Translations under genes and position numbers: made by a program
Shown: one piece after another, positions 31,501 to 57,524 of the stretch
Position numbering within the stretch: the first letter of the stretch is position 1
Layout of the letters: each line of letters starts with the position of its first letter
The notes under the pieces: generated by a model
Told to the model about the DNA's origin: nothing
The model's database searches: none
Seen by the model: the letters and a program-made list of their open reading frames with translations, nothing else
Assembly: GCA_022747635.1 (NCBI GenBank)
Contig: JAKTNV010000014.1
Span: 12,989,110 to 13,053,109 of the forward strand
Origin: Hetaerina americana
Taxonomy: Eukaryota; Arthropoda; Insecta; Odonata; Calopterygidae
Direction: 5' to 3'
DNA: 64,000 nucleotides

Positions 31501-32936
31501 TCCATCTCTTTGATTATATATCCCAACAATGTCTAAAATACATTTAGCATTACATGCAGAATGTTTGTCGGCGTCTGCCATCATGCATGTCAATGACAAG
31601 ATGGTAATACTCTTAAGCCCTCCATGTGGTTTGCCATTTGTTTCATATTATTGGAGAGAGACCCAGGTTGCATTTCTCCTTGCAACTCATGCATGCAATG
31701 ACTTAAAATGCCACAAGTAGTGCCTCTGCATTTAACTGTGTGTACCAACAGGCAGAGTTAATACATATGTAATGTATGTTTTGTAACATAACTTTTGCCC
31801 CATTCATTGATTTTCTGCATGCATTAGGAAATATGTAAAAGGTATAGAACTGAAGAGAAGGAAAGTGGGGTATTCAAAATTCATTATTCTATGAAATTGG
31901 CCTTAAGTTTTTAAAAAGGTTCAGATTATTGACATTGACTCCATTAAGGAACTGTAACTTGTCATTTCCTCAGTAACTAAACAGAAAAACCCAACTCTTA
32001 GCATACCTGATTGGACTCCCAAGGTCAAACATTTGAATTCTGCGCATGGTATATTCACATATTTTACTGTGCTGAATATGTCTTGTATCCATTACTAGCT
32101 GTTGCCTATTTTGGTCAGTGGTCAATTTTTAGGGAATGAAATACTAATGGGAGTGGTCTTTGGCACTGACTGTAGTAACCGCTGCTATACAAGTATATAT
32201 AGGTCTTATGGCAGAGTAAACAGAAACTGAAAGCAAGAATAATGGCATACTGAAAAGCCTGTAGAGAAGGAAGGAAAAATTTTGGACAGTAAAAAAATAC
32301 TGTCTAAAAAAACCAGGTAGGGTTGCTAGATTTTGCAATAATGGTGAGAAGCTGGTGACAAGACTAAGATATTATAGTTGCAGGGCGACTGCATTTGTTT
32401 AGAATATCTAAACTACCTAATTCTAGAATGGCTGGTATTTTAATTCAATGATATGGAATAGAGAAAAATGTTGAGGCATTACAAGTAGAAGATAATATAA
32501 GAGAACTTTTTAAAAAACCATGGAAAGAAAACTTAATTTACTTTGCACCTTGTGATGCGCTTTTCACATATGTGTAAAAGTGTAAAGAGGTAGCATAAAT
32601 ATTTGTTGCTTGTGGGCATTTGAGTGATATCTAACCGAAGCTTTTAATTGCATCTTGAGGAATTTGATATAAATTGATTTGGTCTGTATTGTCAATCTCC
32701 TTGTTGAAATGCACAATGGACAACTGAGTTACTGCTCCTGTACGCTGAGTTACTGATATATTTTATGATATAATTTCTATCTAACAGCTTATAATGCATA
32801 ATTCTACCTTTTCCTCTAACGACATATTCCACAACTTTTACCTGCTAGTTATTCTTTTCTTTCATGATCAAAGGAAGCCATGACAATCTGCCCAATCACA
32901 AGATCCATTTTGATTATTTTTGAGCTTGAATCTGTT

Positions 32937-33084
32937 CGTTTAAATGAATATACTTTGTAACTTCCACACAATTTTTATTCGTACTACCGGTTTCAACGCA
33001 ACGGCGTCATCATCAGGTACAGAGTATATTCATTTAAACGAACATGAACCTCCACAAAGTTGAGCCCGAGACCATAGAATTCAA
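32937..33084 (-). mobile_element. Penelope-like foldback insertion with hammerhead-like core
   Basis: Direct repeats cttgaatctgtt (32925-32936 and 33085-33096) flank the insertion; the first arm extends slightly into the left repeat. Arms 32934-32954 and 33023-33043 are a perfect 21-bp inverted pair. On the minus strand the core reads GTAC, CTGATGA (33010-33016), a hairpin with acgc/gcgt, GAAA (32991-32994), CCGG, TA, GTAC (32981-32984). The end near 33,050-33,080 resembles the end of the Penelope-like element at 43,480-43,510 (cctccacaaagt versus cttccacgaagt). Confidence 0.7.
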
Positions 33085-33392
33085 CTTGAATCTGTTTATT
33101 CATAAAACCTACAGGTATTCTGTTGGTCTTCAATAGGCCTTGAAGGAACCCTTGCACCGAAGCTGGGCAATCCTCGGATATCTGAGAGAATAGCATCCAA
33201 TCTAAAATATGATGTTATGCATGTGTCCTATGCATGGCATTTTCTAAAGAATCTGGAAGAAGTTACTGTTACTTGAAGTTGAATGGGAACAGAGTTACTG
33301 CATAATTTAAGTGATTTTTGCTATGAATTTTAGCTTCCATAGGTTTTTCAGCTTTAATATGTTATTAATTTCTTTTTTCATGTATAAGATTA

Positions 33393-33395
<3 letters not shown>

Positions 33396-33453
<58 letters not shown>

Positions 33454-33475
33454 TATTATTATTATTATTATTATT
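33396..33475. repeat. (TA)n then (ATT)n microsatellite
   Basis: A simple-sequence run, about 27 TA units followed by ATT units. Open frames across it are artefacts. Confidence 0.95.
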
Positions 33476-35267
33476 GGTCATTTTGTTACCAAATAGTCGT
33501 CCACCTATTAATGTGCAATTGCAGTGTCATCACCAAGGTGCTGGGAAACAAATGTCTTGTGTATTGAGAGGTTTGTTTTAGGCATGGCAGCAAATGGATT
33601 TTCTATATGAATATAGGAAAGTGTCATGAATAAATAGTCATTTAAGAGGTTTCACTGTACTTAGCAATATCATTTGCTAGATTTCAGTTGGTAGAAAGTG
33701 GACATTTTTCTGGTGAAATTAGGAGAGTGAATTTTCAGTAGTTTTAGTCATACACCACGAAGATGTATACCATGGCATTACTTTTTAATACCATGCATTT
33801 TTACTTAACTGATATTTGATTTTTTTAGCATTTGGTACTTTTGATTAACATCCTCAAATTTACAGTGGTAGAATTGAGGTTTGTGAAAATATGAAGCTAT
33901 TAAACCGATGCCCACAGTGTATTTGTGTTTAATTCATTGTATAATATTTGTTCATAAATGAGTGGTAAAAGGAAAAAAGGTTGAAGTTAAAAAAAACAGC
34001 CCAAAATTTTTATGCCAACACTAAACTGAGCTTTATCATGCATATGCCCTAATATTGTATTTTATTCATGCTTCAAGCACATTGTGAATTTTCTTCTGTA
34101 TAATTAGTGAAATATTCTTAAAGCTAAGATAAGGGGTCAAAGTTTTAATTTCTAAGTTACAAGTGTGGAATATAAATTGTGTTGAATGCAATCATTTTTG
34201 CAATTAAGCATTTACTTAATTTAACATTTAAATCCAGTGATTCTTTAAAATATGTTTTATTTCAAGACATTTTTTACAAAGCTATATTGTATTGCCTTGA
34301 ATTGTGTCATTATTTGCATTGTAAAATGGCAGTGCGATTATATTTGACTCCTATTGAAGTTTTAAGGTATAACATATGTTATTCACAATATCCATATTCA
34401 TCTGAAAATATTATCTCTCAATCAATTTCTTATTGTTATTTACAACTGTTCTTAATAAACAATATTATAATATAAAAGTATTAGTAATTTGTATCGTGGT
34501 TGTTTACTCAAGGGTATGTTAGTGTTTTTGACTCAGCACTCTTAAGGGTTACTGTCACTTTTAAATTAGCTGCAGGATCCTTTGGATAAAATAACATGCT
34601 ATTTTTTAATTAACTGCCATTGGTTGCTGATGAATGCGTGGTTTTCTGTAATGAAGCAATCATTACTCTATGCCTTGTTTCCAAAGGTATCTTTTTTGTT
34701 AAATTTTTCAGAAGAACTTCTATCTGCAATAGAATAAGTAATGATCATTTAATTATTAATAAGTTATTCGTAATATTCACAGATTATTGTTTGACATGCA
34801 TAATTCTGTGTTAAATCATATTTCAAGCAAAATTTGAGCTGCAAACTTTTTCAACTTTCTTGATATTTAGTTTTAATATAGACTACATTTGACCTAGCCA
34901 AAAAATGATTAAGCACATGCTGTCTTGATACTATTATTATTCAAAATTTCAAATATATATCTGTTTTCTCATGGAAATTCTTCTATCTTAGAAAAGGAAT
35001 GATGTGCTGTTGCAACAATGGAAGAGTACTTTAGATGGCTTTTCAGTTGGGGGAAATTTAAACTAGTAAAAATGGATGAGTTGCACACTGAAAATATCTC
35101 TGTAAATGCTAAATTCAACTTGGGGTTGTGAAGAATAGATCACCAAAGTTTAGCATATTTAGCTGGAAAAACATTGTTAATTTTGATTTGATGGATGATA
35201 AGGTGTAGTATTTTTAACTTAAAGAAAATTTCAGTCTTGACTAAATAATTAATCAAATAACGTATTG

Positions 35268-38200
35268 TTACAGATTACCCACCTCATCCAGTAGCCCCAT
35301 CACTTTGTCCAATGAAGTTCTCCATGTTTCCATTTCAACATCATTGAAGCCACCCATGTTAATGGGCATTGCAAGCCATTCTTTATATCCTCCTGGATTA
35401 AACCTGATAAATATAATTTAAAATTAACATATATTGGGGATTTATTATGCATCTTAAAACGTATTCCAGTCCCAGTGCATATTTCTGTTATGTAATTGGA
35501 ATTAATATAACTTCATAATGGTCCAGTGCCCTGGAGCATTCTTCAATCTAATTAAGGTCTTATCCTTTGTAGATTTCCTGTATTTTGTCTTCTTTACATG
35601 AATGCCCACTCTGAATTTCAAAGACAGTCAGCAGCCAATATAAAGCTGTGTACCACAAGTATCTTTTTTTGCAGATGAGACGTCTTACACAAGTTCACAT
35701 CCATGCTGGTCCCATTGTTGCAGGGGTAACGTCCTCACTTGTCGACCCAGTGCTCATGGGCTCAATACTCACCTAGGTGGGTCTTCCTCCACCTAGGGCA
35801 TAGATGTAATTTGTCTTCCATGTAATTTGTTAAGGTTAGGTGGAAGAGTGGACTATGAAGTTTCAATCTCATCCTAGTTATTATTATTAGGTAATCTACC
35901 GGTTAAGGTAGGTTTTTGGATGTCCATAATTACTAATTAAATAATTTGTGACCCCTAGCAAAACACAACATCATACTCTACATCAGGTCCTTCTTCAGCT
36001 CTGAGTACTTTCTTCCTCCCTTCATCCCGTCCAACATCCCTATCCTGTTCCTTCCCTTTCCTCGTTTTCCTAACATTCTTCCCTCAATTGCAGTCTTCAA
36101 CATCCCGCTGCTGGTCAATAACCCCATTCCTCCACTTTTCTTGCATCCATAGGATTTCTCCCCACAAATCCCTCTCTTCGCCCACCATACCATGTACTTC
36201 CCCTCATTTGTTTTCTTCTCTGTCCATTTCACCTCCATTCTTCTCCACACCCACATTTCAAAAGCCTCCAATCTACGTCCATCCTCCTGCTTCAATGACC
36301 ACGTTTCCGCCCCATACATAGCTACGCTCCATATCAAAGTTATTACGAGTCTTTTCTTAACATCCTTACTCAACGTCCCCATCATCGACTCCCTCCTCCT
36401 TGTGAAAGCCTCTTTGCCAAGCGCAATTCTTCTCCTTACGTCCCTACTACTTTGACCGTGTTGGTCCAAAATACTCGTACTTCCGAGATATGTAAACTGT
36501 TCTACCTGCTCTAGTTTTCGCCCTCCTATTTTAATGTTCAGCTTAGCCTTTTTCTTTCTAGAAAATTGCATCACCTTTGTTTTATTAATATTGATTCTCA
36601 TCCCATACCTGTCGCACTGAATTTCCAATTTACTCAGCAATGCTTGCAACCCCTTGGCTGACTGACAAACTAAAGCTTGGTCATCAGCAAAGATTCCCCA
36701 TTCCCCACTCGGACCTGAACAGTCTGAGACGTGTACAGGTTGCGGATTAGCCTCCTTTCCCTCCAATCTATTCCTATTTTCTTCAATATGCTCATTAGTT
36801 TTTCCCAATTCACTCTATCAAATGCTTTTTTGAAATCTATGAAACAGGCAAATACCTCCTGGTTGTGTTCTATATTCCTCTCGATTAATAATCTCATTAC
36901 TACAATGGCATCATGCGTACCTCTCCCCTTCCTAAACCCATACTGATCATCCCGTAAGTAATCATTTGTCCTACTCTCTATCCTATTGTTTATGATCCTG
37001 AGAACAACTTTAGCTGCGTGGGAAATCAAACTAATTGTCCTGTAGTCCTTACATGATGTAGCCTTTAACTTTTTCAGAATGGGAACTAAAACTGATCTCA
37101 CAAAGTCTTCTGGCCAGATTCCTTCCTCATAGATACTACAAATCATCTGATATAGCCTCTTCCTCCCACATTTGCCTAAACATTTCAATAGCTCCAAGGG
37201 GAATGTTATCCACCCCCACGGCCTTATTTAATTTCATCTCCCTTAATGCCCTTTCTATCTCATTGTCTAGTATGCCTGGGTCTAAGCTATCTTCCTCTAC
37301 GTTATATTCTTTTTCAATGTCTAACTTTGTTTGTCGAAGTTCTTTACTATACAGCTCTTCTATATGTTCCTTCCATCTCTCTTGGATCTTTCCTGTGTCA
37401 ACCCACCTTATCTCTAACTGTTAGCATAGATCTCCCTTTCTTACTTCCCGATAAGGATTTAACTTTGCTGTACAGCGTACCGATTTCATCCTTCCTCTGC
37501 AAACTTTCCATATCCTCGCACTGCCACTGCGTCTTCCACTATGCTTCTATTGCTTTATTTTTTACCCATCTCAATTTATTATTTAACTCTTTGTATTTCA
37601 TTTTGCCAAACTCTGTGTGTACATTCTTCCATTCTCTCTTCTCATTCATCTTTGTAATCATCTCGTCCGTGAGCCACGGTATCCTTGTCCTTTTTCCGTT
37701 AACCGTTCCTACAGTGTCTTTTACGGCTTTTGATATCCCTTTCTTGATACATTCCCATTTTTCTTCGATAGTACTCAGTTCTTTACCGTCGTCCATTGTT
37801 TTCTCTACAGCCTGTTGGTATTCCTTCCTTTTTAATCCATTTAACGCTTCTACATTCCATTTCCTAACCCACCGCTCCTGCCTTATCTTTTTGAAACGGA
37901 CGATTTCATAACAACTAAATTGTGGTCAGAGTCCGCATCTGCTCCCGGGAAGCTGTGCAAATTTATCACACTCTTCCTAAACCTGTCTCTAACCAGGATA
38001 TAATCTAGCTGATACCTTTCTGAGTCACCTGACATTTTCAATGTATACCTGCGTCTTTTGTAGTGTCTAAACCAGGTGTTGGTGATGACTAACTCCTGTC
38101 TCGTGCAGAACTCAACTGCTTTCTCCCCGAGGTCATTCCTTGTGCCTAAACCGTAGTCCCCAACCTCATCACCATCTCTTCCTTTGCCTACCATCGCATT

Positions 38201-41200
38201 CCAATCGCCCATCACTATCAAATGTTTCCCTGCAGGAACACACGCGATTATGTCCTCCAACTGATCGTATATCCTTCGACCTCTTCTTCCTCCTCCTCCT
38301 TCCTCCTCATCCTAATTAAGTCATTAAATTAAGAAACCCTTTCTTCATCTCTCTGCCATTCTCAGAAGTGTCAGAAAAACATAATTCAACCTATCCTCTG
38401 CCTACCAGGACTTTAGTAGCAGATAATGAGATTGGTGGAGGAATAGATAGCATGCCTGCCATTGCCATCAAGAACTAGCCAGCGCTTATTTCTTTCAATG
38501 ATATTTATCATTTTCTTCATATATACACTTTTCAGCAGTTATACTGACAAATTCCAAATTCACCTTGCAGTTATTTGATTACAGTTCGATAGAATGCCTT
38601 ATATGAATCTTTACGCAAAAGTAGCAAGCTTTTGAAAAAAAACAGAGTAATCAAAGATGTTAAGAAATGGGATCTGCATTGTAGGACAGGATGTGCCAGA
38701 AGGAAGTTTTTGGAGGAAAAAATAATTTAACTTAACAGTACAAATCAGGAATAAAGAGACTTAAATAATTAACTTAATAAAGGGGAAATCCTAACAGTTA
38801 TCCTATCATCCCTGTATGTGTGTGTACTATATATATAAATTGTCACGAAAGTCACTTACTTGAGAGTATCAAAGTTGATCACTGATGAATGCATATCAGT
38901 TTTTATTTTGATTTCTTGCAGCGCTCTGAGTTTAAAGCAGAGGAAAGCATTGAGTAATGCAAATGAAGCTATTGTAATAAGCAGCAACATCCATGGGAAT
39001 TTGTCTTTAAGTTTTTCTTTTTTTTCTAGAAAAAAAGTGGAGATCAGGAAGAATTAGTAAAACTTGTGAGAAATGTTATAAAACCTAATTTTAATCCTTC
39101 AACTTAATTTCCTAAGTGAGACTGTTACAATGATCTTCTTTCCTTTTTCACTGAATGTTCTAGCACTAATTGTCTATCGAGGTAAAATAATGAATCATAA
39201 AATTATGGGTGTTAATTCGACATGCATACGTGTAGTATGGCATAAAACTGAGAATGCTAGGTGTTTTCATGGCAGTTAAATTAAAACTCAGATTTGCAAA
39301 TGAGGGCATTCTTAATTTAAAAATACAGAGTAAAAAAGGCTTCCACCCAAATATTTTAATGAATAAAAATAATATGGGTTTCGACTGTTGCTTATTTTAT
39401 TCCACTGTTGATGCCTTATCAAAATCCGGGGAGGAAAGATAAATCAATGGATTCAGAAATTTAGATACCATTCCGAGGTTGAACTTCAAGGCAGCAATTT
39501 AGCACATGACCATAATGAAGACCCATGAAATCAATAATTTTGCTTCCACGACCGTTTAATAACTTGAGAAAAGACTTTAATTAATCAGTACAAAGTCATT
39601 TGTCCCTTTTACTTAATTGGGAAAATCCCTGTAGGTCTCCAGAAGTGCATTGTGTTGCCATTCCAGAGCAGATAAAGCGGATCAGATAATAAGATAAAGA
39701 GAGCAGATAAATATGAGAATCTTCAAACTTATACTTTATGAAACATGCACTCCTTACGCTATAATTCAAGAACACTTACTACAGACAAATCTTATTATGA
39801 AGACTGCAAAAGGGATATTTTTAGTCTTTGGATGACAACGCAATGATCCACATTGTCTAGAACAACTAGGTGGCTGAGATTAAATCTGGACCTCATTACA
39901 AGAAGAAAGTAGTAGATGCCAGAGAGTTACTTTTACCAGTTAGCTCCAATGTCTATTTCAAGAAGGTATCCAATTAGGCCAAAGGAAATTCTTTGGAAGG
40001 GCTTAGTCCAAGGAGAAAAATATCATCTCGCAAGTTGAATACAATATTTGGCAGAGAGAAAGGGAAGGTGGGCTAAGGATGATTCGTATAATAAAAGATA
40101 ATGAAGTTAACCCCTGAAGAGAAACAAGTAAAGATTATGGTCCTGAGTAGGTTTTGAAGAATCAAGAAGAAAATAATAGCTCTAAAAGTAGTTATTCAAA
40201 TTGAACAAAAGATCTCTAAACATCAGGCATCATACACCTAGAAATAAGGAAATACTTAATTTAAACACATGCATAAATTATTTTTCAGCCATAGTATTGA
40301 AGGATAGATAATACCAATAAGAACGAGTTGGGAAATGTGATTGTGCATAAAAATGCCAATGATTAAAGAGAAATGAAAATTGTACTCTTTTAAGCATAGT
40401 TGGAGAAGTAACATATCTTAATTAAAACTTAAAAGAAGGGTTAAACATGTTGGACACATTTTGAATCACAATAGTCTGATTAGACAATCATCAACGGACT
40501 ATTTAGTGACTAGAACAACTAAGATGACCCCAGAAGAGATTCATTGAATAACTAGTGGCAGAAGATGTTCAAGAGAAGGTCTAAACATTTAGAAGCTAGT
40601 AAGAATAAATGGGATGGGAGCTGTGGAAAGCCAATTATAGGATTGATTACCTATTATAATGATGATATGAAATTGCGGCAATTGTTAGTTGCTTATATTG
40701 GAACTTGTTGGAAGTTTGATAGAATTGTATTTATAAAATTTAAAAATAATAGTAGCCAAAGCTTTAAGACTTTATAAGAAAAAGATTGTTGCAAGATATG
40801 CGAAGTATCTACTATGAGAAGTAGTGAACTGAAAAGTGTTCTATGGGATGGAAAAGATTGAAGGTACTAAATACATATTATGAATGAGAACAAGAGGTAC
40901 TGTTCACCTAGGAAATGAGCTAGGATTATGAATGGGTGAAGGATACAGTAATATATCAAAATATATACTCCTGTCAGGAGTTAATCGATTGTCACTAATG
41001 CCTTCTTGCTTGTTTTTACTCCAGGAATTCTTATGTCATATTAGATTAAATGAATTCCTGCAGTACCAACAGAAGGTAATAGCGATTGTACACAGCCTGA
41101 GGTTGAGTAAATATAGATATTGCTTAAAAGAAGAAAGCATGAAGAGCCTTCATTAATCACAGATATGAGATCCCAGTATAACCAACTACTTCACTTTATT

Positions 41201-44200
41201 CAGCTAACAGAGTTTAACATAATTCATTATGAATGTACTCATTAAATGGTATGCATGTACTCTCTTCTAAGTTTTGTGTTTAATTTTTTTGTGCTGTTAT
41301 GTGACAAGTTATTCATAGTAATTAGATATAAAGAGGAAGACTTACTCTTTCTTCCTTTTGATATTTTCCGTGACCTCACTGTGTGATCAATATTCTGTGC
41401 TACTGCATCTGCAATTCCAGGTCCTGCAATAGCATGCTTCCTCCTGCGATGAAGTTTATGACCACCAGTGTCATCTGTTGTAATATAAGCCCTCATATTT
41501 GCATGGTCACATTCCTCCTTTAGCTTTGAAGTGAGAGACTCATAAAATTCTTCAATGCCAATCCATGAATTCTTATCTATTAGAGCTAAAAATAGAAAAT
41601 AATTGTGATTGAAAGACAACGGAAATTTATGAAATAGCTATACATATTTTTTAATATTTCATATTTAAAGTTGAAAGTATAACCTATGGCATTCTTTTAC
41701 AATTTTCCCAAAGTAAGGCTAGCAATTTCTAAATATTTTCATTATTAAATAGTGAGTTTTCATATCAATTTCCATATCCCTAAAGCTAAATGAAATCTGA
41801 AGATTATAAATATGCTATCAGTAAAAATATTTTTTATATGTACAAGTGGGAAAGGATTACACATTGTGATTCCACATTAAAGTATATTTTGCGACCATAG
41901 TTTTACTAACAAAACTTTGAGAAAAGCACAGGGGTTGGTGTCCTACCCATCCAGGATGGACGTGCACAAGGAGAACTTCATGTAGTCATCACTGTTTGAT
42001 GGTAATCTTTTAGGAAACATGGTAATAAAAAATATATTGATGTGCATAAGCATTGTGGTTCTATTCCTTTCAAATGCTTGCTATATGTTGCTTTAATAAT
42101 TCAAGCATGTAAGGGGGAAAGTAGCTTTAATGTATTTACATAATCACTGCAGACAGGTAGGCTACAATTTCCTTAAATCCTGCTTTCATTGGTACCAGCG
42201 GTTGGAACAATATGGTCTGATTCCCTCCTAAAGTCTCCCATTTCTTCTAGATTTCTGTGTTCCCAAATTTCAGGTATGATTTATTTTAATAAATTTGAAC
42301 CCCTCTTAAATATACACTTAAAAAAATGACATATCTGTAAAATGAGCTGAAGACAATCATGAATGAGGAATCTTGGTTCATCTCCATCCCCACCCACTCC
42401 ATAAAAGTTCAACCTACAGGAACTAATGATTAATTATTGGTACATGTAAACAATATTTGAAGGTGCATTGAAGCTGAAAATTTGAGCTCTGATTAGAGTT
42501 AGTCTATTTGAAAACTATTTTCTGCACCTCATTCTTTTGCAATGGACCCAATGCAATATTTAATGTGACATAGCCATGCATGGAACCCAAATATTGTTCT
42601 TATGTTTACTAAACAGTTTGTTTTACCAATATTTTTGCAAACTAATAATTTTTAAAGTGATATTCACTAATATAGCTACCAACAATGGTTTCAACCCCAA
42701 ACTAGTTGACACATTACTACGGAAAAAACAAAAAGCAATGGCCATAAAATGCATTTTCGTATCACAGCCCGCAGTATCTAAAGATTTTAAGTGGTGCTCG
42801 ATCCCATTTCTGGGAGATCTCTCTTATAGGATTTCCAACTGCCTACCCACCTCACTCAAAGCAGCCTTCTACCCACCCATAACCCTCTCCAAACTTCTAG
42901 CCAATGGAAAAGACACCCAGGATAGCCTTATCAAATCTGGCATTTATAAACTGAAATGCGAGGATTGCAACAGCGTTTATGTCGGTCAGACCGGCAGGAA
43001 TATCAAGTTACGAGTCAAGGAACATGCTAGGTGTCACAAAAATCAGAATAACAACTCTCTCTTCGCCAAGCATTTACTAGAATTCGACCACAGCAGTGAC
43101 TTTGTCCCAGAGATATTACACACACTCCCAAAAGGATTAAAAATGGACGCTCTCGAGCAATTAGAGATAAGAAGGCACTTGGTAAACCCCAACACGACAC
43201 TTTGTAATGAGCAATTGTTCCCATACCCCTTCCCACTCCTCTCAGAAAAACTAGCCTGGAAATGGTCGAAACAATCCATCAATGCACCTGCGAGCCCCCA
43301 CCCCTCTCAAATCCTTCCAACCCTCCCCGCCCCCACTCTGTCCTGAGGGTATATATGCTTGCTCTGTCTGTTTTGCAAATTTGTACCTGATGATGCTGCA
43401 AGTCGGTGAAACGCGTTGTACCATATAATAAAATCTGTGGAAAAGTACGAGACTTTCTTTTTAGAATGGATATTAAATACTTCCACGAAGTGAAGCCTGA
43501 AACAATAGAATGCCATTGCCTTGTTTAAAAACTTATTTGATACTCAGAGTAATAAAAATAGAGTTGTAATTAAAAAGATAGGTTTGTGAGCCATTCTATG
43601 GGTCTTGAATAAAACAATTTTGGATTGATCAATGTTAATATTATTGTTATTAGTATTTATATAATTGTCAAACAAGATTTTCAATGGACCCAGTGACTGA
43701 GCTCTGCTGCATTTCAAATCCCAGCATCATACAACATTAAACTCCACAATATCCTATCTAGTAGTAATCTATTCTTAGATCTCAGTCACTGGGTCCATTC
43801 CTTTCCTCTATACCACCTACCCAACAGACCTCAGGCACATAGAATACAAGTGCATACCATGTTGGATTTGACTGAGACCTACAACTTCTGGGATTCATTA
43901 TCTTGTTAATTCCCCTGATGGTTTCTTAGATTCCGATAGGATACCTGGGGTCACTTGACTATCAAAACAGTTTAATGACGAACAGCTGTTTACTTACCTT
44001 TTACTGGGGCCCACAATGATTTGGTGTACACAAGTTTTGAGAAGACAGAAAAATTGCAGGTAAACATCAGCGAAGCACCAGATATCTCTGAATCTCTGTT
44101 GGGATGTGAGTTTATATTTTCTGCATTCATGTTGTTCTCTTTTAACCCAGGTTCTTGGGTTGTGTCTCGAAGACAGAAATGGGTAAAACAATGAAACGCT

Positions 44201-47200
44201 TCAGCATAGCGAAATCCAGAGTTGTATGCACACATGTCCATTGAATATAGTTGTCCTGGTTTGCTGCAGGGAAGCATAATCTGTAATGTTGAATGAAGGG
44301 TGAAGAGTCTAGTGTGTTGTAAAGGTTGTAATCAGGGGACACAAGACTCTGCAGTGTGGGAAGTCCTAAGTCAAGTAACACCCCTTTTCTTTCAACACAG
44401 TTAATATGAGTACTGTAAAATTGATGTATTTTTTGGTAAAGCAGATTTTCTAAACCAGCATGTGTTTTAAAAGTTGGCCTTAAAAAATAACTATTGGACA
44501 AGTAAATTTGCTCTACTAATAACGTTTTTAAAAGACCTCAAATAATAGGATGATGCCAATAATATGTTGCTCCCCACTAACCTAGCTATATATGTGAGCT
44601 AGTAGACATTAAAACAAGATTATGCCCCTGGACCAAGGGAGGGTTACCGATTGATTCAATTATATTTTGTTTGATATGGCAGAACAGCATTGTATGAAAT
44701 AAAATTAGGGAAGATGGTTGTCATTGCTGATCTGTAATAGACACCTGATCACCTGTGGGTAATAATGCACCATTTGATGTTAAAAATATTTTTAAGTGTG
44801 GTCAATGGCCATCTCTGCTAAACACTTACAAGGCAGAAAAATATTGAAAAGATTCAGTCAGCTACTGGTAATATTTTTGATTAGAATGAAATATCAAGTC
44901 GGAATTTTCTAAAATATATGTATGAAAAACTGGAATCTCTCGGAGAACCTTCAATCAAATATTATTTTATATGTTTTTACTCTCATACTTGTATATTTTT
45001 GATTTTTGTTGCAAAATGTTCCATTTTATTCCTTGGTGGTTTAATTGTCAAAGAGTGATTTTTATTGTGTTTATGATTGATTTGGTCTCAATTTATTGAT
45101 CAATAAAAATGGTACATTTTTAATTCAACTGAAATGATATTGCCCTCTCCACTATTTGAAATCATTTTCAAATTTACCATTTTAGTGAATTTGTAGGTAC
45201 ATATACCACTATTGTATGTATGGTATAAGTTAAATTATCCAGGTAATGAATGTTCTTTTGAGGGAGGTTCAGCTACCAATAATCTGCAATTGCAAGAGAT
45301 TTTCATTATGTATGCACATGAATAGAATTAAGTCTATTCTTCTTGTGCGATTGCAGCATACACCAGTATATTGCATTAAATTCAGCATCACAATGAGATA
45401 ACCAAATACATATTATTTTCATTTCTATAATTGCAGTCAATAACTATTGCCACATGGATAATATTTGCTGAAACATAAATTGGTAAAGGATGTGAAACAA
45501 CCTAGGAAATAAAAATATGCCCTGGAACTTTGGGAGTTTGTTGATTGTTGGTTTGTAGGTACCCATAGGTAACCATACAGCGACAGATTATGTGTTAATA
45601 CTTTTGTCTTGCTGTCGCTTTTGAATCAATAAACCTATTTTCGCCTATTCATTATTATTATTGTTATTAGAAGCAAACTGCATGTTGTATTTTTATTCAA
45701 AAATGGCTTCACCCAACTTAGATTCCCTTCACACCTGTTTTAAACATGTATTTTAAACTATTTTATGATTGAGAATGACTAATATTTTTTTAAGTAATAG
45801 AAAATACCCACTATTGTTTGGTTGTGATCAAGTGATTGAGTAAATTCATAAATTAACTGTAGATCATACTTTCTGATACCATATTGAGTGTGATATAGTA
45901 GTTGGAAAATTTTTAGGATACATACTAATTGATGATAGATGGAAGGCATTTTTTTAATTACACATCAGAGGTGAATGGGCTTTTGTTGTAGGTTAAAATT
46001 AATTTTGTTTTCATATTTTGGGGCAAGAATGGAATGAGTGTATTTGAGATAGGTTGGTAAGGCCAATTACTTCTCATGAATGATATGTGGTTTTGTCTTC
46101 AAAGATAAAATTTGGAGATGATGTACAGGGTTCGTCCTGAAAATAAGTGTACTGAGCTCAGGAAAAAAAATTTATTACACTTTTACATATCTTAAGCTAA
46201 TATTCCTCAAAATAGGACCCTTGTGAGTCGATACACATGTTCCAGCGGCGTTCCCATTCCTGGAACACTCCCGCCAAGGCATCATCGGGAACCTCTCGAA
46301 GACTCATCGTCAACCTCTTCTCTGCCCTCCACGAACATCTTGTGCCACCGAAAGATCATGTTTCTGGACATGGCTGACTCCCCGTAAGCCTGGTTAATCA
46401 TACCGACAGTTTTGGTAGACGATTTCCCAAGCTTTATCGCAAATTTGATGGAATAACGCTGCTCCAAAAACTTCGGCATCGCGTTCCGTGACGTGGGTCG
46501 AGCGTGGAGGTTCGCGTTAACAGAGCTCCTCACTACACCACAGCTCAGAGCTGACTGCCTTTTTCAGCGTCGCTTGCCAACATACCCCCCTCCATTCGCA
46601 GCCCGTCAGAGCGGTGCTGGGCGCGCCTGGAGCGGTGGGAAAAAATCAGTACACTTATTTTCCGGACGAACCCTGTATGTGATGGAATAATTTTTTCTGT
46701 TGGTTCTAATCACATCATAAGTAAACATTTTTCAGTTATCCAGATATTACTGGTAGTCTCACCCCTTTAAAACTTGGTGAGTCTTGGGCTTGTCATTAAG
46801 AGTTCTAGGGGCTGAGTGACAAGAGTAAATCAAATACCCATACCTGAAATAGAACTCCAATCTACAAACTTTGGGCTAGTGGCAAGTGTATTATCTACCC
46901 AAATAACCTGGCCAGCATTATTATATTACTGGAGTGGCATATGCACTTTTCAGCTGAAGCTATCATAAAATCAAGTACAGTCCGTCTAAAACTTTCAGGT
47001 GATTATGATGTTGTTCACAAAGATTGTGATTAAGGTTAAATTTTAGATATAGGTCATTCAGAGTTTTATTCCTTTCTATCACACCTGAATAATGATTACT
47101 TTTTATATTAAATATTTCTGTCAAACCCTTTTCAGAAAATGCTAGTTTTAGTGAACTAAAATGGTATTCAGAAAAAACTGATATTTCAAGTCAACATTGT

Positions 47201-50200
47201 GAAATTTAATAAATGTCAATCCATGCTTCTGGGCATATTGAAAGACAGAAGTCCTGTTAATATATCAATTCGACTGAAAACTCACTTATGATATAAGAAC
47301 TTGTCTTTATTTTGATAATTAAAAATGTTTGCATCCTGGAAAACAATGGACTGTATAAACTGTGTTCTTAATTTAATACTTTAAAGGATTGCTCCCTTGA
47401 CAGACAAGGCCATGGAATATCTATAGCGCCCTAGAATAACATTGAAGTGTCCAACACCCCAACTCTCTATTTTGTGATAGCTTTTGGTTTCATTAGGTAG
47501 TTTCATCCAATTGTTAAACACTGAAAATATTCATAAAATATGATTACTTACTAAATTTTCAGTTACTCTAGATGTCTTTGGTCCAATAGCTTTGTTCAGA
47601 TAGATTGTTAGTTCAACTTTCTTCTTTTTCCCTCCAGTTTCTGGATCATCTTCCCAAGGTGTTTGCACAATATCTGTGAATTTTTGATGCAATACACTTT
47701 GTGATATTATTAACCAAAATAAGATTTCTTGTTTATGAATCAAGGAAAAATGGTGATAATTATTTTTAGGAAAGAATTTAAGCCTGTCAATAGAAAGGTA
47801 CCCACCATCAATACTGGTCTAATTTTGTTTCCATGTTTGACCCTGTCATTTTTATCCATTGGAATATGATTTACGCTATCAGATCAGATTGGTTTAGTGG
47901 CTAGTGTCAGATTGAATGTAAAATTCTGGATCCATTGTCAATTTTTTAATTGGGTCATGCCAATGTGAGCTCAAATTGAAGTAGTCTGCTTTTCAAAGCC
48001 ACAAGTAAATTTACAATGCTTAAAATTTGCTCATACAGTACATCCTGATAGCAAAAAAAATATTCAGAACTTATTTCATCTACATGCCATGGAATGGGCA
48101 TAGTACCTAAAATGATTTGTACTATACATACTATGTAAGACTATTTGAAGAGGACTTCTCAATTGACTCGGAACTGTGAAATGTGGTCCATTGTACTTGA
48201 CCCCTATGTCCACTCCCTTAGTACATATTATTTCCCTGATGGTGGAATTCATAATGTATTGATATCTCTCTCTCTAATGGTAATTACTTGATATTTTAGC
48301 AGCCAGGTAGGGAGCAAAAAATACTGAAACTTAAACCAACACTAGGAACTGAGCCTTGGGCTTTGATGTGGGTAGCAAGGCAAAAAGCTTCTGAACCTCT
48401 CTAGTTTTTTCTACATTCCACTTCTGTACTCTCGCGCAATTTAAAACATTTTAATTTACAATCTTCTATTTGGCCAAAATTTAATTGTTATGAAATGTAG
48501 CGTCCGTTTCAAAAAGATAAGGCAGGGGTGGTGGGTTAGAAAAGGGAATGTAGAAGGATTAAATGGTTTGAAAAGGAAAGAGTACAAACAGGCGTTAGAT
48601 TAAATCTTGGAGGATGGTAAAGAGCTAAGTACTATAGAAGAAAAATGGGAAAGTATCAAGAAAGGGTTATCAAAAGCCGCAAAAGATACTATTGGAACCG
48701 TTAACACTTAAAGAACTAGGAAACCATGGATCACAGATGAGATGATTACAAAGATGGATGAGTGGATAAAATGGAAGAATGTAAATACAGAGATAGGCAA
48801 AATTAGGTACAAAGAGTTATAAAATAAATTGAGGCGGGCAACAAATAAAGCAAAAGGAGCATGGTGGAAGACGCAGTGCGAGGATATGGAAAGTTTGCAG
48901 AGGAAGGGTGAAATCGGTGCGCTGTACAGCAAAGTTAAATCGTTATCGGGAAGTAAGAAAATGAGATCTATGCTAACAGGTAGAGATAAGGCAGGTAAGG
49001 TAATAGCTGACACAGGAAAGATCCAAGAGAGATGGAAGGAGTATATAGAAGAACTGTATAGTAAAGAACTTTGACCAACAAAGTTAGACATTGAAATAGA
49101 ATACAGCATAGAAGAAGATAGCTTAGGTCCAGGCATAATCAACAATGAGATAGAAAGGATATTGAGGGAGATGAAACTAAATAAGGCCGCGGGGGTAGAT
49201 AACATTTCCGCGGAACTATTGAAATGTCTAGAAAAATGTGGGAGGAAGACCCTATATGGGTTGATCCGTAGTATTTATGAGAAAGGAATCTTGCCGGAGT
49301 CTTTGTGAGATCAGTTTTAGTTCCTATTCCAAAAAAGATAAAGGCAACATCATGTGAGGACTACATGACTATAAGTTTCATATCCCACACAGCTAAAGTT
49401 GTTCTCAGGATCATAAACAATAGGATAGAGAGTAAGGCAAATGATTACTTGGGGGATGATCAGTTTGGGTTTTGGAAGGGGAGAGGTATGCGTGATGCCA
49501 TTGTAGTAATGAGATTATTAATCGAGAGGAATATAGAACACAACCAGGACGTATTTGCCTGTTTCATAGATTTCAAAAAAGCATTTGATAGAGTGAATTG
49601 GGAAAAACTAATGAGTATTGTGCAGAAAATAGGAATAGATTGGAAAGAAAGGAGGCTAATCCACAACCTGTACATGTCTCAGACTTGCTCATGTGCGAGT
49701 GGGGAATGGGGAGTCCAGATGGGCAGTGTTAGGAAGAGGTGTAAGGCAGGGTTGCCCATTATCAATGGTGCTGTTCAACGTATATGTCGAGGAAATGATT
49801 AAAGAGGCATGGGAAGAACTGGAAGTAGGAATGAAAGTGGGCAGGGAATTCGTAAAATCAGTTAGGTTTGCTGATGACCAAGCTTTAGTTTGTCAGTCAG
49901 CCAAGGGGTTGCAAGCATTGCTGAGTAAATTGGAAATTCAGTGCGACAGGTATGGGATGAGAATCAATATTAATAAAACAAAGGTGATGCAATTTTCTAG
50001 AAAGAAAAAGGCTAAACTGAACATTAAAATAGGAGGGCGAAAACTAGAGCAGGTAGAACAGTTTACATATCTCGGAAGTATTTTGGACCAACACGGTCAA
50101 AGTAGTAGGGACGTAAGGAGAAGAATTGCGCTTGGCAAAGAGGCTTTCACAAGGAGGAGGGAGTCGATGACGGGGACGTTGAGTAAGGATGTTAAGAAAA

Positions 50201-52581
50201 GACTCGTAATAACTTTGATATGGAGCGTAGCTATGTATGGGGCGGAAACGTGGTCATTGAAGCAGGAGGATAGACGTAGACTGGAAGCTTTTGAAATGTG
50301 GGTGTGGAGAAGAATGGAGAAGGTGAAATGGACAGAGAAGAAAACAAATGAGGAAGTACATGGTATGGTGGGCGAAGAGAGGGGTTTGTTGAGAGAAATC
50401 CTATGGAGGCAAGAAAAGTGGATGAAGGGGGTATTGACCGGCAGTGGGATGTTGAAGACTGATAGAGGGGAGAATGTTGGGCAAACGAGGAAAGGGAAGG
50501 AACAGGATAGGGATGTTGGACGGGATGAAGGGAGGAAGAAGGTACTCAGAGATGAAGAGGGACCTAATGTAGATGTTTTGCTAGAAGCCACAAAATATTT
50601 ATGTAGGAGCTGTGACCATCCGAAAACCTACCCTAACTGGTAGATTCCTTAATAATAATAAAAATTTATTTATGTTGACTGTTGTGCCATGTAATTCAGT
50701 TGCAATGTGGTCATAAACCTATTTTATGTCTAATGGACTAAAGTTATGGAAAAGAATAACCTCTTACCTGTTGTTTTTCTCTCAGAATGAAAGTCAAGGT
50801 AAAAGCTGGATTGAGTGAACACCATTGAGAAAAGCTGATCTATGTGCATGTTAAGATCTAAATTCACCACCTGGCGCCCATCATGTTGTGAGGTACATAT
50901 GCATTGTTTTGCATAACTTTTAGAAACTGTTGGACAAAGAAGCTTGATTAGTTTAAATGCAGGCTGAAAACATTCACAATATTCATATTAAAATTTTATC
51001 TTTGGCATTTCCAGAGTCAGGGAATTCAGTTTTCCGTATTCAAATCCTTTGTTAAGTATACTATTAAATTGATGTAAGATAATATTAGTTATAGACAATC
51101 ATATATGTATTTCATTTTTCAAGGTTTTTTACTAATTATGATTGAGCATGATGCTAAAATATGAAACTAGTTAAACAATTGAACTTAAGTATTAATTTTT
51201 AAGTTCAGCAATACCAAATTTAACAGTAATTAGATTAGACATTCATTTAAAGTCACGAATTTCAGGAAAAGTTGTGATACTCACCAGTTTTTATCACTGG
51301 ATCTGATTCCGATTCTGAGGCCTTACTGTCTTCTTCTTTTGATAAATCCTCCCTTGAAGTTGATATGTATGGTGGAATATGGTTGCAACTTCCTTTTAGA
51401 TTATGAATACCCTACAAAGATATGATGTTTTTAATCATTTTAATGCCAATCGAAGAGAAGTGCCTCCTGGGTAAGAATAGAAATGTATTTATCCTGATGT
51501 TGGGAATTGACAAACTAACAAGACTTGCTGACATGGTTACTGAGGGGCAATTCCTCAGTTAATGCAATGGATATGAAATTCATACTTTATAGTGCGTAGC
51601 TGTAGCAAGCTATGATTTGGCTATGCTTGGGCCTCCATGAAACCCTGTGGTTATGGGGGCAAATGTGGCATTTTGGTGCTATCTGCCGCAGTATACTTAA
51701 TGAAAAATAATTTATGCCTACCTATCATTTAAATATCTGCGTGCCCATGGGAATCTGGTGGGTGTGGTAGCTTGGGCACTAGCTTCCCACCCCAGGGCTG
51801 AATCCCAGAGGGGGCCAATTCCTGAGTGCCATGTAGAAAGCATTTCAAGTACAGCGCACCAATAACTGTTAAAGGGTACATTAAATAGTTGACCGATTGG
51901 TGCCTTTTATTGAAAGTAGACTAATGCCAATGTCAGGTTTCTATCCACTATTCTCCCATATTTATATGGTATTTTTTTTCTTCTACTGATGAAGGAGCTA
52001 CCCCCAAGACAGAAATATTCCTCTGGTGGTATGTTTTGGGATAAGGAGGTGGCCATTTCATCATGTAAAGGAGCCTTCTGTAATTCTTGATATTATACTA
52101 TTATATTAGCACTTGAACTGATAATAAACCTTTGTACCACCCATCTAATTATGGCTGTATGTTATTCATTGTTTTTCTCCCCATTAGTTTTTGACTAAAT
52201 ATACCTCTGGAATCGTTTTTACCATTTAGTATTTTCTATGGCCCAGACAAGAAATTAGTTTTGGACAAAATTACTATTACCTATGCTACAATTAATGGTA
52301 GAATGGAAATTTATATAGTATAGTGTATAGTGGCTGTGAACTTAATAGCAGCAGAAATTTATATTGTAGTTGAATGTCAAACTAAAGTCAAGGTCAGTTA
52401 TACTCACATCTTCCTTAAATGTCTCTTGTTTGACACTATGTGATGATCTCTTATGTGCATGGTCCAATACATTTCCTTCGTTAGCACTGTTATCTTGGGT
52501 GTCATCTATTATGTCCTTTACTTCTTCATTTCTCTCCTCTCTACCCACTGCGTATGCCATCCCATGTTCTTGTGTATCCAT
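35268..52581 (-). CDS. GRAMD1: GRAMD1/Aster-like protein with VASt domain and membrane anchor, no GRAM domain seen
   Basis: Eight exons on the minus strand: 52581-52408, 51411-51285, 50926-50768, 47673-47552, 44280-43998, 41585-41346, 39025-38860, 35403-35268. All GT/AG borders and phases agree, giving 468 residues. Residues 1-100 are an acidic, probably disordered linker. Residues ~110-310 match the VASt domain: HIDQLFSMVFTQSSFYLDF, DIVQTPWEDD, IGPKTSRVTE, SKPGQLYSMD, KSLWAPVKALIDKNSW, with an insertion of about 25 residues before LMFTCNF. A basic RRRK patch follows, then one hydrophobic helix (~379-400, MLLLITIASFALLNAF) and a short tail ending EVGNL. Aster proteins are ER-anchored and move cholesterol from the plasma membrane through the VASt cavity; the GRAM domain normally binds the plasma membrane. 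Here it is absent. Upstream, ggttag before the ATG could be an acceptor, so exon 1 may be internal and the GRAM exons may lie outside the window. Confidence 0.85.
35700..35860 (+). mobile_element. tRNA-like SINE (probable), private to left copy
   Basis: gttgcaggggtaacgtcctcact followed by gggctcaatactc has tRNA-like box spacing. The corresponding place in the right duplicate copy (about 60,545) lacks both this and the adjoining RTE element. Confidence 0.4.
35878..38305 (-). mobile_element. RTE-type LINE, copy 1, 5'-truncated and internally deleted
   Basis: On the minus strand the order is endonuclease end (37,883-38,260: VMGDWNAMVG and SDHNLVV), linker, reverse transcriptase (36,670-37,197: FIDFKKAFDRVNW), then ADDQALVCQ, YLGS and the C-terminal WRRME block to 35,978. 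The segment between VRVGNGES and the FADD box is missing about 150 bases, which removes the GVRQGCPLS motif seen in copy 2, and there are several frameshifts. The 3' end has a TAA-type run (35,878-35,890). It sits in the last GRAMD1-like intron and is absent from the right duplicate, so it inserted after the duplication. Confidence 0.85.
39026..41345 (-). other. GRAMD1-like intron 6
   Basis: AT-rich sequence with no recognised gene. Its part nearest the membrane-anchor exon (to about 39,520) is matched in the right duplicate copy. Confidence 0.55.
42640..43510 (+). mobile_element. Penelope-like element, 5'-truncated, GIY-YIG endonuclease end
   Basis: The open frame 42,576-43,346 contains, from about 42,650, the C-terminal region of a Penelope-like polyprotein: ATNNGFNPKLVDTLLRKK, then SGIYKLKCEDCNSVYVGQTG, the GIY...YVG signature of the GIY-YIG nuclease, and RVKEHAR, with LEIRRHLVNP further on. 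The RT domain is lost. The 3' non-coding part has a hammerhead-like core: GTAC (43383-43386), CTGATGA (43387-43393), GAAA (43408-43411), CGCG, TT, GTAC (43418-43421). It lies antisense in a GRAMD1-like intron. The frame is intact for this part, so the copy is not very old. Confidence 0.85.
43685..43800. repeat. Short inverted repeat
   Basis: aatggacccagtgactgag (near 43,684) and ctcagtcactgggtccatt (near 43,781) form 19-bp arms about 80 bases apart inside an intron. Their origin is unknown. Confidence 0.6.
44281..47551 (-). other. GRAMD1-like intron 4
   Basis: 3.27 kb with the mariner derivative at 46,126-46,675 and a faint SINE-like stretch at 46,795-46,925. Otherwise nothing was recognised. 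Confidence 0.55.
46126..46675 (-). mobile_element. Second-family mariner deletion derivative (550 bp)
   Basis: Bounded by TA (46124-46125, 46676-46677), with 27-bp terminal inverted repeats differing at one base (cagggttcgtcctgaaaat versus cagggttcgtccggaaaat). The minus strand encodes a transposase N-terminal HTH (46,282-46,476: MPKFLEQRYSIKFAIKLGKS ... AMSRNMIFRWHKMFVEGREEV), and then, after a junction, the C-terminal tail (EWERRWNMCIDSQGSYFEE). The catalytic core is gone. Ends and protein differ from the 6030-6782 family. The body is GC- and CpG-rich against an AT-rich intron. Confidence 0.85.
48493..50660 (+). mobile_element. RTE-type LINE, copy 2
   Basis: Same family as the element at 35,878-38,305, opposite orientation. 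The endonuclease is lost; homology starts at gtccgtttcaaaaagataag. Pieces: 48,829-49,074 (ends at a TGA where copy 1 has CGA, a CpG-decay type change), 49,305-49,802 (RT with FIDFKKAFDRVNW), then a frameshift near 49,690 into 49,693-50,643 (GVRQGCPLS, FADDQALVCQ, YLGSILDQHG, WRRMEK). It ends in a TAA run about 110 bases from a GRAMD1-like exon. Several frameshifts make it inactive. Confidence 0.88.
51745..51990 (+). mobile_element. tRNA-derived SINE, family B, diverged
   Basis: gggcactagcttcccacccc, then a B-box-like ggctgaatccc, then ttggtgccttttattgaaag follow the order of the copy at 54,563-54,870 with many changes. It lies in the first GRAMD1-like intron. Confidence 0.55.
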
Positions 52582-52619
52582 TTTCAATGACTGATCTAAC
52601 CGAATTCAATGCGTTCGTT

Positions 52620-53000
52620 GTAATATTACACCAATGATTTGTATGAAAATTTGTATGATATAAATAATAATTGTGTCTCTTAAGGCTCACCGGATGAATC
52701 CGATTTTAAAGTGAAGGAAGTTAACTTAATGTCCCATAATCATGATCTCTGATCTCTTTTATGCCCGCGCAAAAACTCGTGCGATATTCTCCCCTAACCT
52801 GTCGATAATACTATTTAGAAAAAGCAAGATAGCTGTGTTTTTGGGAAGAGTAAGCATTTGAAAGAAGATAAGATTCTCTTCTTATCGCTCTCCAGCGCAG
52901 GAAGTAATTTTTATAGTGCAAGTAGATATATTAGTCGCTACGGTAGCGGCACAGAGGGCCGACAGAAGTGGAGACGGAAGGCGATCGGGATAACTAAGTG
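52620..53000 (-). promoter_or_regulatory. Possible promoter / 5' exon region of the GRAMD1-like gene
   Basis: A stretch with more CG dinucleotides than its surroundings (gtcgctacggtagcggcac, 52,934 on) begins about 350 bases before the ATG at 52581. This fits a local start of transcription but does not prove it. The alternative is that the ATG exon is internal. Confidence 0.3.
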
Positions 53001-54560
53001 ATTACTCGTATTAGACGTGAACCTTATTTTTTGTCCGTTTCAAATTCATGAGGAAATACTGCGCCCGGTACATGGATTTAAATGACAATCGATAAAGTAA
53101 TAATAGTGGAGAAATCGCGAGGTCGCATTTGAACAAAGTTGCAATGTCTTCTGGAGACTCCGATGTGCTCATCATTTCAAAACGAGAATAAAACTTCGTC
53201 AAAGTGACCTTCAAAACAGCAATATAAAGCAAGTTTTTTCTTTCTTTGTTCATTATCTCATGATAAGCAACATTTCGCTGGTGGCGTTATTTGGATAACT
53301 CAATTCAATTATTCGATTTTCCTAACAAAAGACAACCTGGCACCCCACACTACGACTAAATCTTCGATCACTCCATTCTTTTCAACATGCCTAATCTATT
53401 CCTATTAATCCTGTAATGTTCTCCCATCTATTAGTCTTCTCAAATCGCTTAAGAGGAGTTGCCACATCTGTAACACCTGCGGAGTCAATCCCAAGTCCTT
53501 GGCCCAAAGGCTTGCGATATCCCACAGCTGCGGAATGAAGTCTTGATTCTTAAAGCATGTCAGACGATGATAGTTTGAGGTTAAAGATCGGATCTGCCCA
53601 AGCCCTCCAGCGTCGGCCAACGGTCGTTTTCTGCATTCGCACCATTCGTGAGACTTCAGCTACAAGTCTTGTGACTCAAGTCTACAGACCAATTATAGAA
53701 CGACCTTAAATGATGAAGTATTACCTACGAAGTGCTAATGCTGAATTAAATAGGGGTGTCTAAGTCGCTGGCCAAATTCATAGAGTATCTAGATGCGCGA
53801 TATTTTGAAGTAACATTATGTAATGATTACATACTCTTCAGAACTAATAATCATGAATTCTCTTCCATACGTTAATTTGAAACTTGTCGGATCACCTTTT
53901 ATCTCAATGACTCTCAATTAAGAAATAGAGCACGCTTCAATGCATGCCTACCGTCTGGAATTTTGACGGATAACATTTAAAATTCATAAAAACGAACATG
54001 GACTCCATACTCCCGACGCGGTATTACTAGGGAGCAAAGCTTATGCATCTCGCATAACAACCATTCTTGCTTTATTTGAAAGATTCGATCTAAATATGTC
54101 ACCAACTGACTACTAAGTATCCTCACATGTTATCCATTTGTGTATCCATAATTCCAGGTACGCATTCCTTTAGCTGTCTGATTTTTCAAAATACTGCCAA
54201 CTATCACGAGGATCACCAAGCTGAATATTTCACAAATTTTTGAAGACATTTTCCTAAGATAATTATTTCAATTCGACTTACAGCAACCAGATCATCAGCT
54301 ATGCCCTGAAGTAACTAATTAAAACACATCGAGGCCCAGTTTAATAATGTCTCATTGAACTGAAAATTAAACTCCAGTTGAGGTCAAAACTCAGTTTAGT
54401 GACCACTATTATAAAAACCACCATTAACCTGCTCAGTAACTGACTGATAGTGTTACTACTATTACAATGTTTATATCCATTCATCAGCAATCTTATTAGC
54501 TTATAAAATCAGATTTTTGGGCAATCTCCACTCAAAAGCTTTTGAACTAAACTTAAACTT
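53001..54560. other. Intergenic, nothing recognised
   Basis: No GRAM-domain exon was found on the minus strand here. A 71-codon minus frame at 53,405-53,620 (RSLTSNYHRLTCFKNQDFIP) has a coding look but no known relation. Confidence 0.4.
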
Positions 54561-55020: not shown

Positions 55021-55046
55021 AGGAAAGGGATATAATTGAATACAGC

Positions 55047-55637: not shown

Positions 55638-56152
55638 TGTATTGTTGATAAAAAGAGTCTCAATTGACTGGAATGCCAAACAAATCTTATCTCACAAAAC
55701 TGCATCTAAATTTGGAATCAGAGAAGGCAACCTCTGTAAATTGTTTCAATTAAGTCAATTGTAGAAATAAAATTTTGTTTACCTGGTGGGTGATGAATAT
55801 ACATATTGCTTCATGCATAAAAACTTCTCATAAAATGCACACCATTAATTTGGGATTGGATAGGTGGCTTCTGAAAGAAGATGCACAAAAGACAGTTGTA
55901 TACACAAAGTGTCATCTACTCAGTATTCTGATTGTCAATTTTTTCATCAAAAAATATGTAGGTATATAAGTGTTACTTCACGGGCACACTTAATTGGGAT
56001 TGATGGCTGCTATTCAATATGAAATTTTCCAAGTGCAAACTCAATCACCCCCTAATAAGGTCAACAGACCCAACACTTGATGAGGACAATTTTATGTTGG
56101 ACTGGATATCTTTTTTCCAAAGATTTTAATTCAAATGGAAAGGAAAATTGTT

Positions 56153-57452: not shown

Positions 57453-57453
57453 T

Positions 57454-57524
<71 letters not shown>
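57453..57524. repeat. (AT)n microsatellite
   Basis: About 35 AT units with one interruption (acat). The left duplicate copy has only a short AT-rich stretch here, so it expanded after duplication. Confidence 0.95.

What the first reader, a model, noticed from the sequence alone, without database searches (positions are those of the whole stretch)
35268..52581. An Aster/GRAMD1-like gene that keeps VASt and membrane anchor but shows no GRAM domain
Eight exons join in frame into 468 aa with a VASt domain and ER-anchor helix. The first visible exon starts with its own ATG and encodes only an acidic linker. In known Aster proteins the N-terminal GRAM domain targets ER-plasma membrane contacts, so a GRAM-less form would be a sterol-binding domain tied to the ER without the usual sensor. 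The tandem duplication offers a mechanism: if the parent gene's GRAM exons lay right of the duplicated unit, the left copy lost them. The acceptor-like ggttag upstream of the ATG leaves open that GRAM exons splice in from beyond 64 kb.
Basis: partly seen in the sequence, partly recalled or inferred. Interest (0 to 1): 0.75.

Follow-up and report, generated by a model that had tools for sequence, protein, structure and literature searches.

The report
GRAM-less Aster gene pair in damselflies
A damselfly carries two side-by-side genes for a sterol-carrier-like protein that keeps the sterol-binding half and membrane anchor of the Aster family but lacks the sensor domain that normally directs such carriers; a complete Aster gene exists elsewhere in its genome.

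Summary
The gene is real and lacks GRAM. The window is Hetaerina americana (damselfly). All eight proposed exons join to 468 aa, but the last runs through a splice donor; a ninth exon (34723-34610) gives a 501-aa protein: linker, VASt, membrane helix, luminal tail. The right copy, followed beyond 64 kb, is also a nine-exon, 501-aa, GRAM-less gene, and an Ischnura protein model lacks GRAM too. No GRAM exon shows in the window plus 50 kb to its right (best 7 bits; canonical GRAM exons 48-109 bits). So GRAM was most likely absent before the tandem duplication. A canonical GRAM+VASt Aster gene lies on another contig; its last eight introns have the same order and phases. The left copy is the conserved one and the right the faster (branches 0.022 and 0.21). 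Most likely function, inferred: an ER-anchored sterol-transfer subunit that borrows GRAM in trans by pairing with canonical Aster. NCBI models disagree on the 3' ends. My paper searches found no report of it. New variant of a known kind.

The parts
52408..52581 (-). left copy exon 1: ATG and linker
   Evidence: in-frame stop at 52606-52608; identical in NCBI model P0001; 88.5% identical to right-copy exon 1
51285..51411 (-). left copy exon 2: linker
   Evidence: identical in P0001
50768..50926 (-). left copy exon 3: end of linker and start of VASt
47552..47673 (-). left copy exon 4: VASt
43998..44280 (-). left copy exon 5: VASt with loop insertion
41346..41585 (-). left copy exon 6: end of VASt and basic linker
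38860..39025 (-). left copy exon 7: transmembrane helix
   Evidence: absent from NCBI model P0001
   Evidence: tblastn with Ischnura P0003, splice acceptor and frame in both copies, intron at the same aligned residue and phase in the canonical gene
52582..53443 (-). 5' flank shared with the right copy (75.2% identity); holds ATAAAAG-like boxes in both copies, a possible promoter
   Evidence: promoter role is inference
63363..63531 (-). right copy exon 7 (its exons 1-6 lie beyond the window, at 74726-66366 in window-extended coordinates)
60003..60123 (-). right copy exon 8
58644..58757 (-). right copy exon 9
27917..53443 (.). left unit of the tandem duplication (patchy homology)
55041..64000 (.). 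right unit of the tandem duplication, continuing to 75559 in extended coordinates

Best explanation
This is a GRAM-less paralogue of the canonical insect Aster (GRAMD1) gene. It arose as a DNA-level copy of the part of an Aster gene downstream of the GRAM exons, with introns kept, most likely in the odonate lineage and before Hetaerina and Ischnura split; later it was tandemly duplicated whole in the Hetaerina lineage. Both copies are intact nine-exon genes (501 aa: linker, VASt, transmembrane helix, luminal tail). Mechanism, inferred: the protein sits in the ER membrane and moves sterol with its VASt domain. Without GRAM it should not find cholesterol-rich plasma membrane alone, so it is most likely brought to contact sites by assembling with canonical GRAM-bearing Aster through the membrane helix and luminal tail. 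Shown here: gene structure, lack of GRAM, intact reading frames, constraint strongest in the membrane-helix-to-C-terminus part, and a canonical Aster gene in the same genome. Not shown: expression, sterol binding, hetero-assembly. My odds: anatomy and absence of GRAM about 0.93; origin from canonical Aster about 0.85; trans-recruitment about 0.45. The confidence below is for the whole.
For: Models: (two copies, nine exons, 501 aa each, 16 of 16 introns GT-AG, same phases). VASt without GRAM: P0001, P0002 and P0003 each have VASt as the only family over its cut-off, while flea P0004 has both. GRAM absence with positive control: four canonical GRAM-region exons 48-109 bits, best of the 114 kb 7.0 bits, E about 3; five GRAM places genome-wide, none on this contig. 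Canonical gene in the same species: P0063, 1111 aa, GRAM+VASt, on contig C2. Its last eight introns have phases 0,1,1,0,1,1,2,0, as here; 5 of 8 fall at the same aligned residue, two within 1-2 residues and one 17 residues off, in weakly aligned linkers. Tree of 34 rows: GRAM-less clade 100/100, beside the odonate canonical pair 87/65. Constraint: dN/dS 0.41 overall (bootstrap 0.30-0.56), 0.19 from membrane helix to C-terminus. Published: GRAMD1 proteins form homo- and heteromers through luminal helix and transmembrane domain, and GRAMD1b without GRAM is not recruited to ER-PM contacts and does not rescue (PMC6905856, passages seen).
Against: NCBI model P0001 of the left copy lacks exons 7-9 and so the anchor, using another 3' exon near 41.1 kb; P0002 of the right copy reads on through the exon 8 donor and lacks exon 9. 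I have no RNA data. The right copy's VASt is weak (53 bits, against 81 for P0001, 89 for Ischnura and 122 for flea), and its dN/dS in VASt, 0.49 (0.31-0.81), allows relaxed constraint. The tail's helical moment beats shuffles only weakly (left 0.113, right 0.037, Ischnura 0.056 of shuffles reach it). The clade joining GRAM-less and odonate canonical proteins has modest support (87/65). The right linker is not acidic (15 D/E, 15 K/R). The genome-wide GRAM scan is not exhaustive: it found only two of the four GRAM-region exons of the canonical gene.
Confidence: 0.5

Rival explanations
1. GRAM exons lie far upstream and are spliced in, so this is one gene with two alternative VASt-anchor cassettes.
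For: An acceptor-like ttag lies 14 nt before the ATG in both copies and scores within the range of real sites in a weak matrix. The right copy has no in-frame stop within 183 nt upstream of its ATG.
Against: No GRAM frame in the 39 kb upstream of the right-copy ATG, with a working control; no GRAM place on the 16.2-Mb contig; P0001, P0002 and the Ischnura model each begin at the homologous M; left in-frame stop 27 nt upstream; use of that ttag would give a phase 1 intron, whereas the canonical gene's preceding introns are at residues 431 and 515, both phase 0.
Confidence: 0.04
2. The GRAM-less protein works without canonical Aster: an ER-resident sterol or lipid buffer, or a carrier at another contact site, recruited by its linker, or a competitor that damps canonical Aster.
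For: It keeps VASt and anchor but not the sensor; GRAMD1b without GRAM fails to reach the plasma membrane and to rescue (PMC6905856). The linker and VASt are the faster-evolving parts between the copies (dN/dS 0.67 and 0.49), as expected if partner or cargo changed.
Against: The part that mediates assembly in mammals is the best conserved (dN/dS 0.19). Neither model has been tested.
Confidence: 0.35
3. One reading: the left copy lost GRAM exons because the tandem duplication cut the parent gene, whose GRAM exons lie to the right.
For: The tandem duplication is real.
Against: The right copy is equally GRAM-less and starts in the homologous exon; the duplicated stretch includes about 860 bp of 5' flank; the Ischnura gene model is GRAM-less while the two Hetaerina copies are each other's closest relatives (100/99), so lack of GRAM most simply predates this duplication.
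Confidence: 0.02
4. One or both copies are decaying: the left as a soluble VASt form without anchor (as NCBI models it), or the right as a degenerating gene.
For: P0001 ends in another exon near 41.1 kb. The right copy has 48 unique changes against 15 in the left (Tajima chi-square 17.3) and a weak VASt score.
Against: Both copies keep open frames, splice sites and phases over nine exons, dN/dS is 0.41 with bootstrap limits below 1, and the left branch is very short (0.022).
Confidence: 0.09

Closest known systems
Canonical Aster/GRAMD1 of the same species (P0063; Ischnura P0064)
   Same: VASt, membrane helix, luminal tail, and the order and phases of the last eight introns; 30-36% identity over the shared part
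   Different: The canonical protein is 1111-1122 aa with an N-terminal GRAM domain; this one is 501 aa and begins in the linker
Protein Aster-B, Ischnura elegans, 494 aa (P0003)
   Same: VASt only, no GRAM; 58% identical to the left and 52% to the right copy; apparent orthologue
   Different: One such protein was found in Ischnura; Hetaerina has a tandem pair
Mammalian GRAMD1b without GRAM (laboratory construct, PMC6905856)
   Same: Same domain layout: StART-like domain, transmembrane domain, luminal helix
   Different: That is an engineered deletion that lost function; this is a natural gene
GRAMD2/GRAMD3 (PMC6905856, passage)
   Same: Also a family member with one half of the layout, anchored in the ER
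   Different: They keep GRAM and lack the StART-like domain: the mirror image

Membership tests
Aster/GRAMD1 (layout GRAM + VASt + TM) | N-terminal GRAM domain | tested here: not met
   genome-wide
Aster/GRAMD1 (layout GRAM + VASt + TM) | VASt/StART-like domain | tested here: met
   PF16016 E 2.6e-22; PDB matches to Aster-A/C domains, best E 1.4e-17
Aster/GRAMD1 (layout GRAM + VASt + TM) | C-terminal membrane helix | tested here: met
   by hydropathy, residues 381-399 in both copies, aligned with the canonical helix; exon missing from NCBI model P0001
Aster/GRAMD1 (layout GRAM + VASt + TM) | luminal amphipathic helix for complex formation | tested here: inconclusive
   aligned tail is present; helical moment weak against shuffles
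Aster/GRAMD1 gene lineage | shared introns | tested here: met
   8 of 8 phases in order, 5 of 8 at the same aligned residue, two within 1-2 residues, one 17 off
Aster/GRAMD1 gene lineage | phylogenetic place beside odonate Aster | tested here: inconclusive
   87/65 support
Aster/GRAMD1 function | sterol binding and transfer between membranes | not testable with these tools

The most novel reading that the evidence does not exclude
A naturally split Aster machine: damselflies separate the sterol-transfer-and-anchor half into its own tandemly duplicated gene, which borrows the GRAM sensor in trans from canonical Aster, so the ratio of GRAM-less to GRAM-bearing subunits sets transfer capacity independently of sensing, with the fast-evolving right copy moving toward another cargo or partner.
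Probability: 0.3. Interest if true: 0.65.

Novelty: new variant of a known kind. Interest (0 to 1): 0.45.

Why it matters
Aster proteins couple a sensor (GRAM) to a carrier (VASt). A natural gene with carrier and anchor but no sensor, kept in two damselfly families beside a complete Aster gene, offers a natural test of whether the sensor must sit in the same chain or can be supplied by a partner. Insects depend on dietary sterol (recalled), so non-vesicular sterol carriers are of interest there. Both genes are already in NCBI's automatic annotation as Aster-B-like; the 3' ends of those models look wrong or incomplete.

Tried and rejected
Tried and not helpful. (1) A splice-acceptor matrix from the 16 acceptors of both copies: left-out real sites scored from -8.4 to 10.2, so it cannot judge the candidate acceptor (scores 0.7 and -2.0). 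(2) GATA motifs in the 5' flank: 4 seen against 3.1 expected (left) and 5 against 2.9 (right); not enriched. (3) Hydrophobic moment of the luminal tail: weak. (4) Nucleotide identity between copies as evidence for exon 9: 91.2%, but some introns are as alike or more, so I rest exon 9 on Ischnura, frame and intron position. (5) Structure prediction: not available, so no fold search was run. (6) A genome-wide VASt scan and a canonical-Aster scan of the own genome: not answered (see below). (7) LINE-mediated unequal crossing-over: a LINE fragment lies at the left edge of both units (27917 and 55041), but no matching copy was found near the right edge at 75.6 kb.

Considered and rejected: GRAM lost in this duplication; GRAM exons beyond 64 kb; left copy as degenerate.

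Full report
What the window is. The window is contig C444 of the held genome, 12989110-13053109; the contig length, 16217270, equals that given for P0001 and P0002.

The observation. The eight exons join as stated into 468 aa; Pfam sees VASt only, and the best PDB sequence matches are Aster-C and GRAMD1A/1C sterol-binding domains. The 3' end needs mending. The Ischnura protein carries a further C-terminal stretch that tblastn places at 34759-34619 and 58769-58653. In both copies a clean acceptor, open frame and stop are there, and exon 8 has a donor at LLDE|gtggg. With exon 9 both copies become 501 aa. The canonical Aster gene has an intron at the same aligned residue and phase. NCBI's models differ: P0002 reads through the exon 8 donor and stops; P0001 leaves exon 6 for another 3' exon near 41.1 kb and has no anchor. 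I cannot exclude that these are real alternative ends.

The right copy. I fetched 50 kb to the right. The right copy has nine exons, 74726-74553, 73247-73124, 71696-71538, 70315-70194, 69229-68947, 66605-66366, 63531-63363, 60123-60003 and 58757-58644 in window-extended coordinates, with the same phases and GT-AG introns. Homology between the units runs from 27917 to 53443 and from 55041 to 75559, including about 860 bp upstream of the ATG. So the gene was duplicated whole, with its near 5' flank.

No GRAM. A profile built from 120 listed Aster GRAM regions was run over the six-frame translation of the window plus 50 kb, 114 kb in all, and of the canonical gene's 80 kb as control. Four canonical exons scored 109, 70, 52 and 48 bits; the best frame in the 114 kb scored 7.0 bits, E about 3. 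In the whole genome the Pfam GRAM model gave five places, two on C1, two on C2 and one on C1137, none on C444; this scan is partial, since it saw only two of the four GRAM-region exons of the canonical gene. P0001, P0002 and P0003 have VASt as the only family over its cut-off, while the flea protein P0004 and its near copy P0005 have both domains.

Origin. The same species has a canonical Aster, P0063 (1111 aa, GRAM+VASt), and Ischnura has P0064 (1122 aa); both are in the listed 120 of 2332 hits. Searching the own genome with P0002 gave 18 matches: 16 on C444 and two on C2; the canonical gene lies on C2, about 6943471-6995818 for residues 148-1111. Its last eight introns have phases 0,1,1,0,1,1,2,0, the series of the GRAM-less gene; five fall at the same aligned residue, two within one or two residues, and the first, in an unalignable linker, is 17 residues off. 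This fits a DNA-level copy of the part downstream of the GRAM exons, not a retrocopy. In a tree of 34 rows (32 of the 123 proteins fetched, chosen to spread over insect orders, and the two copies) the GRAM-less proteins form one clade (100/100) beside the odonate canonical pair (87/65, modest), on a long stem of 1.26. A loop insertion within VASt at the same place in the odonate canonical and GRAM-less proteins, short in flea (alignments), points the same way.

Which copy is conserved. The left branch is 0.022 and the right 0.21 changes per column; with Ischnura as outgroup 48 sites changed in the right only and 15 in the left only. dS is 0.28, dN 0.115, ratio 0.41 (bootstrap 0.30-0.56); by part: linker 0.67, VASt 0.49, post-VASt 0.25, membrane helix to C-terminus 0.19.

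How it may work. In mammals GRAMD1 proteins assemble through the luminal helix and the transmembrane domain, GRAM detects accessible cholesterol with anionic lipids, and GRAMD1b without GRAM neither reaches contact sites nor rescues (PMC6905856, passages seen). The damselfly protein keeps the carrier and the assembling half, and that half is its best conserved part. I therefore favour recruitment in trans by canonical Aster. This is inference: no expression, binding or interaction data are at hand, and the helical-moment test of the tail was weak. A stand-alone ER carrier or a competitor of canonical Aster is the main rival.

Novelty. Eight paper searches listed nothing on a GRAM-less animal Aster gene; 'odonat' with 'aster-b' gave no paper. 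Only listings were seen there, besides passages of PMC6905856, PMC4463742 and PMC5336252. The library leaves out most subscription journals. In PMC5336252 the Drosophila gene CG34394, annotated there as matching a GRAMD1B-like Bombyx protein, gave developmental defects on RNAi, but the authors doubted a link to ecdysone synthesis.

Noticed in passing
window 39038-39637, 41628-42494, 47726-48425: Intron tracts 76 to 99 per 100 (mostly 87-99) identical between the two copies, against about 70-80 in many other introns and 87% in aligned coding sequence: patchy, as after gene conversion or under non-coding constraint.
   Followed up: partly
window 41119-41060: NCBI model P0001 of the left copy uses an alternative 3' exon here and so has no membrane anchor; the last residues of P0001 were not placed.
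   Followed up: partly
window 35878-37928 (-) and 48471-50661 (+): Two LINE copies with reverse transcriptase frames, 86-92% alike in inverted orientation, inside introns of the left gene.
   Followed up: partly
window 42564-43343 (+): Frame with a GIY-YIG domain, perhaps from a Penelope-like element (recalled), in an intron of the left gene.
   Followed up: no
window 6226-6630 (-), 14020-14481 (+), 46285-46563 (-): Mariner/Mos1-type transposase fragments.
   Followed up: no
window about 20744-27207 (+): Exons of a UAA-family (SLC35B-like) nucleotide-sugar transporter gene.
   Followed up: no
window 1-314 and 6024-6336: Inverted repeat of 314 bp, 99.7% identical.
   Followed up: no
window 59183-59257 (+) and 58875-59287: ARAGORN calls a tRNA-Ser (gga) inside a repeated sequence (two copies 333 bp apart); likely a tRNA-derived repeat or chance.
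   Followed up: no
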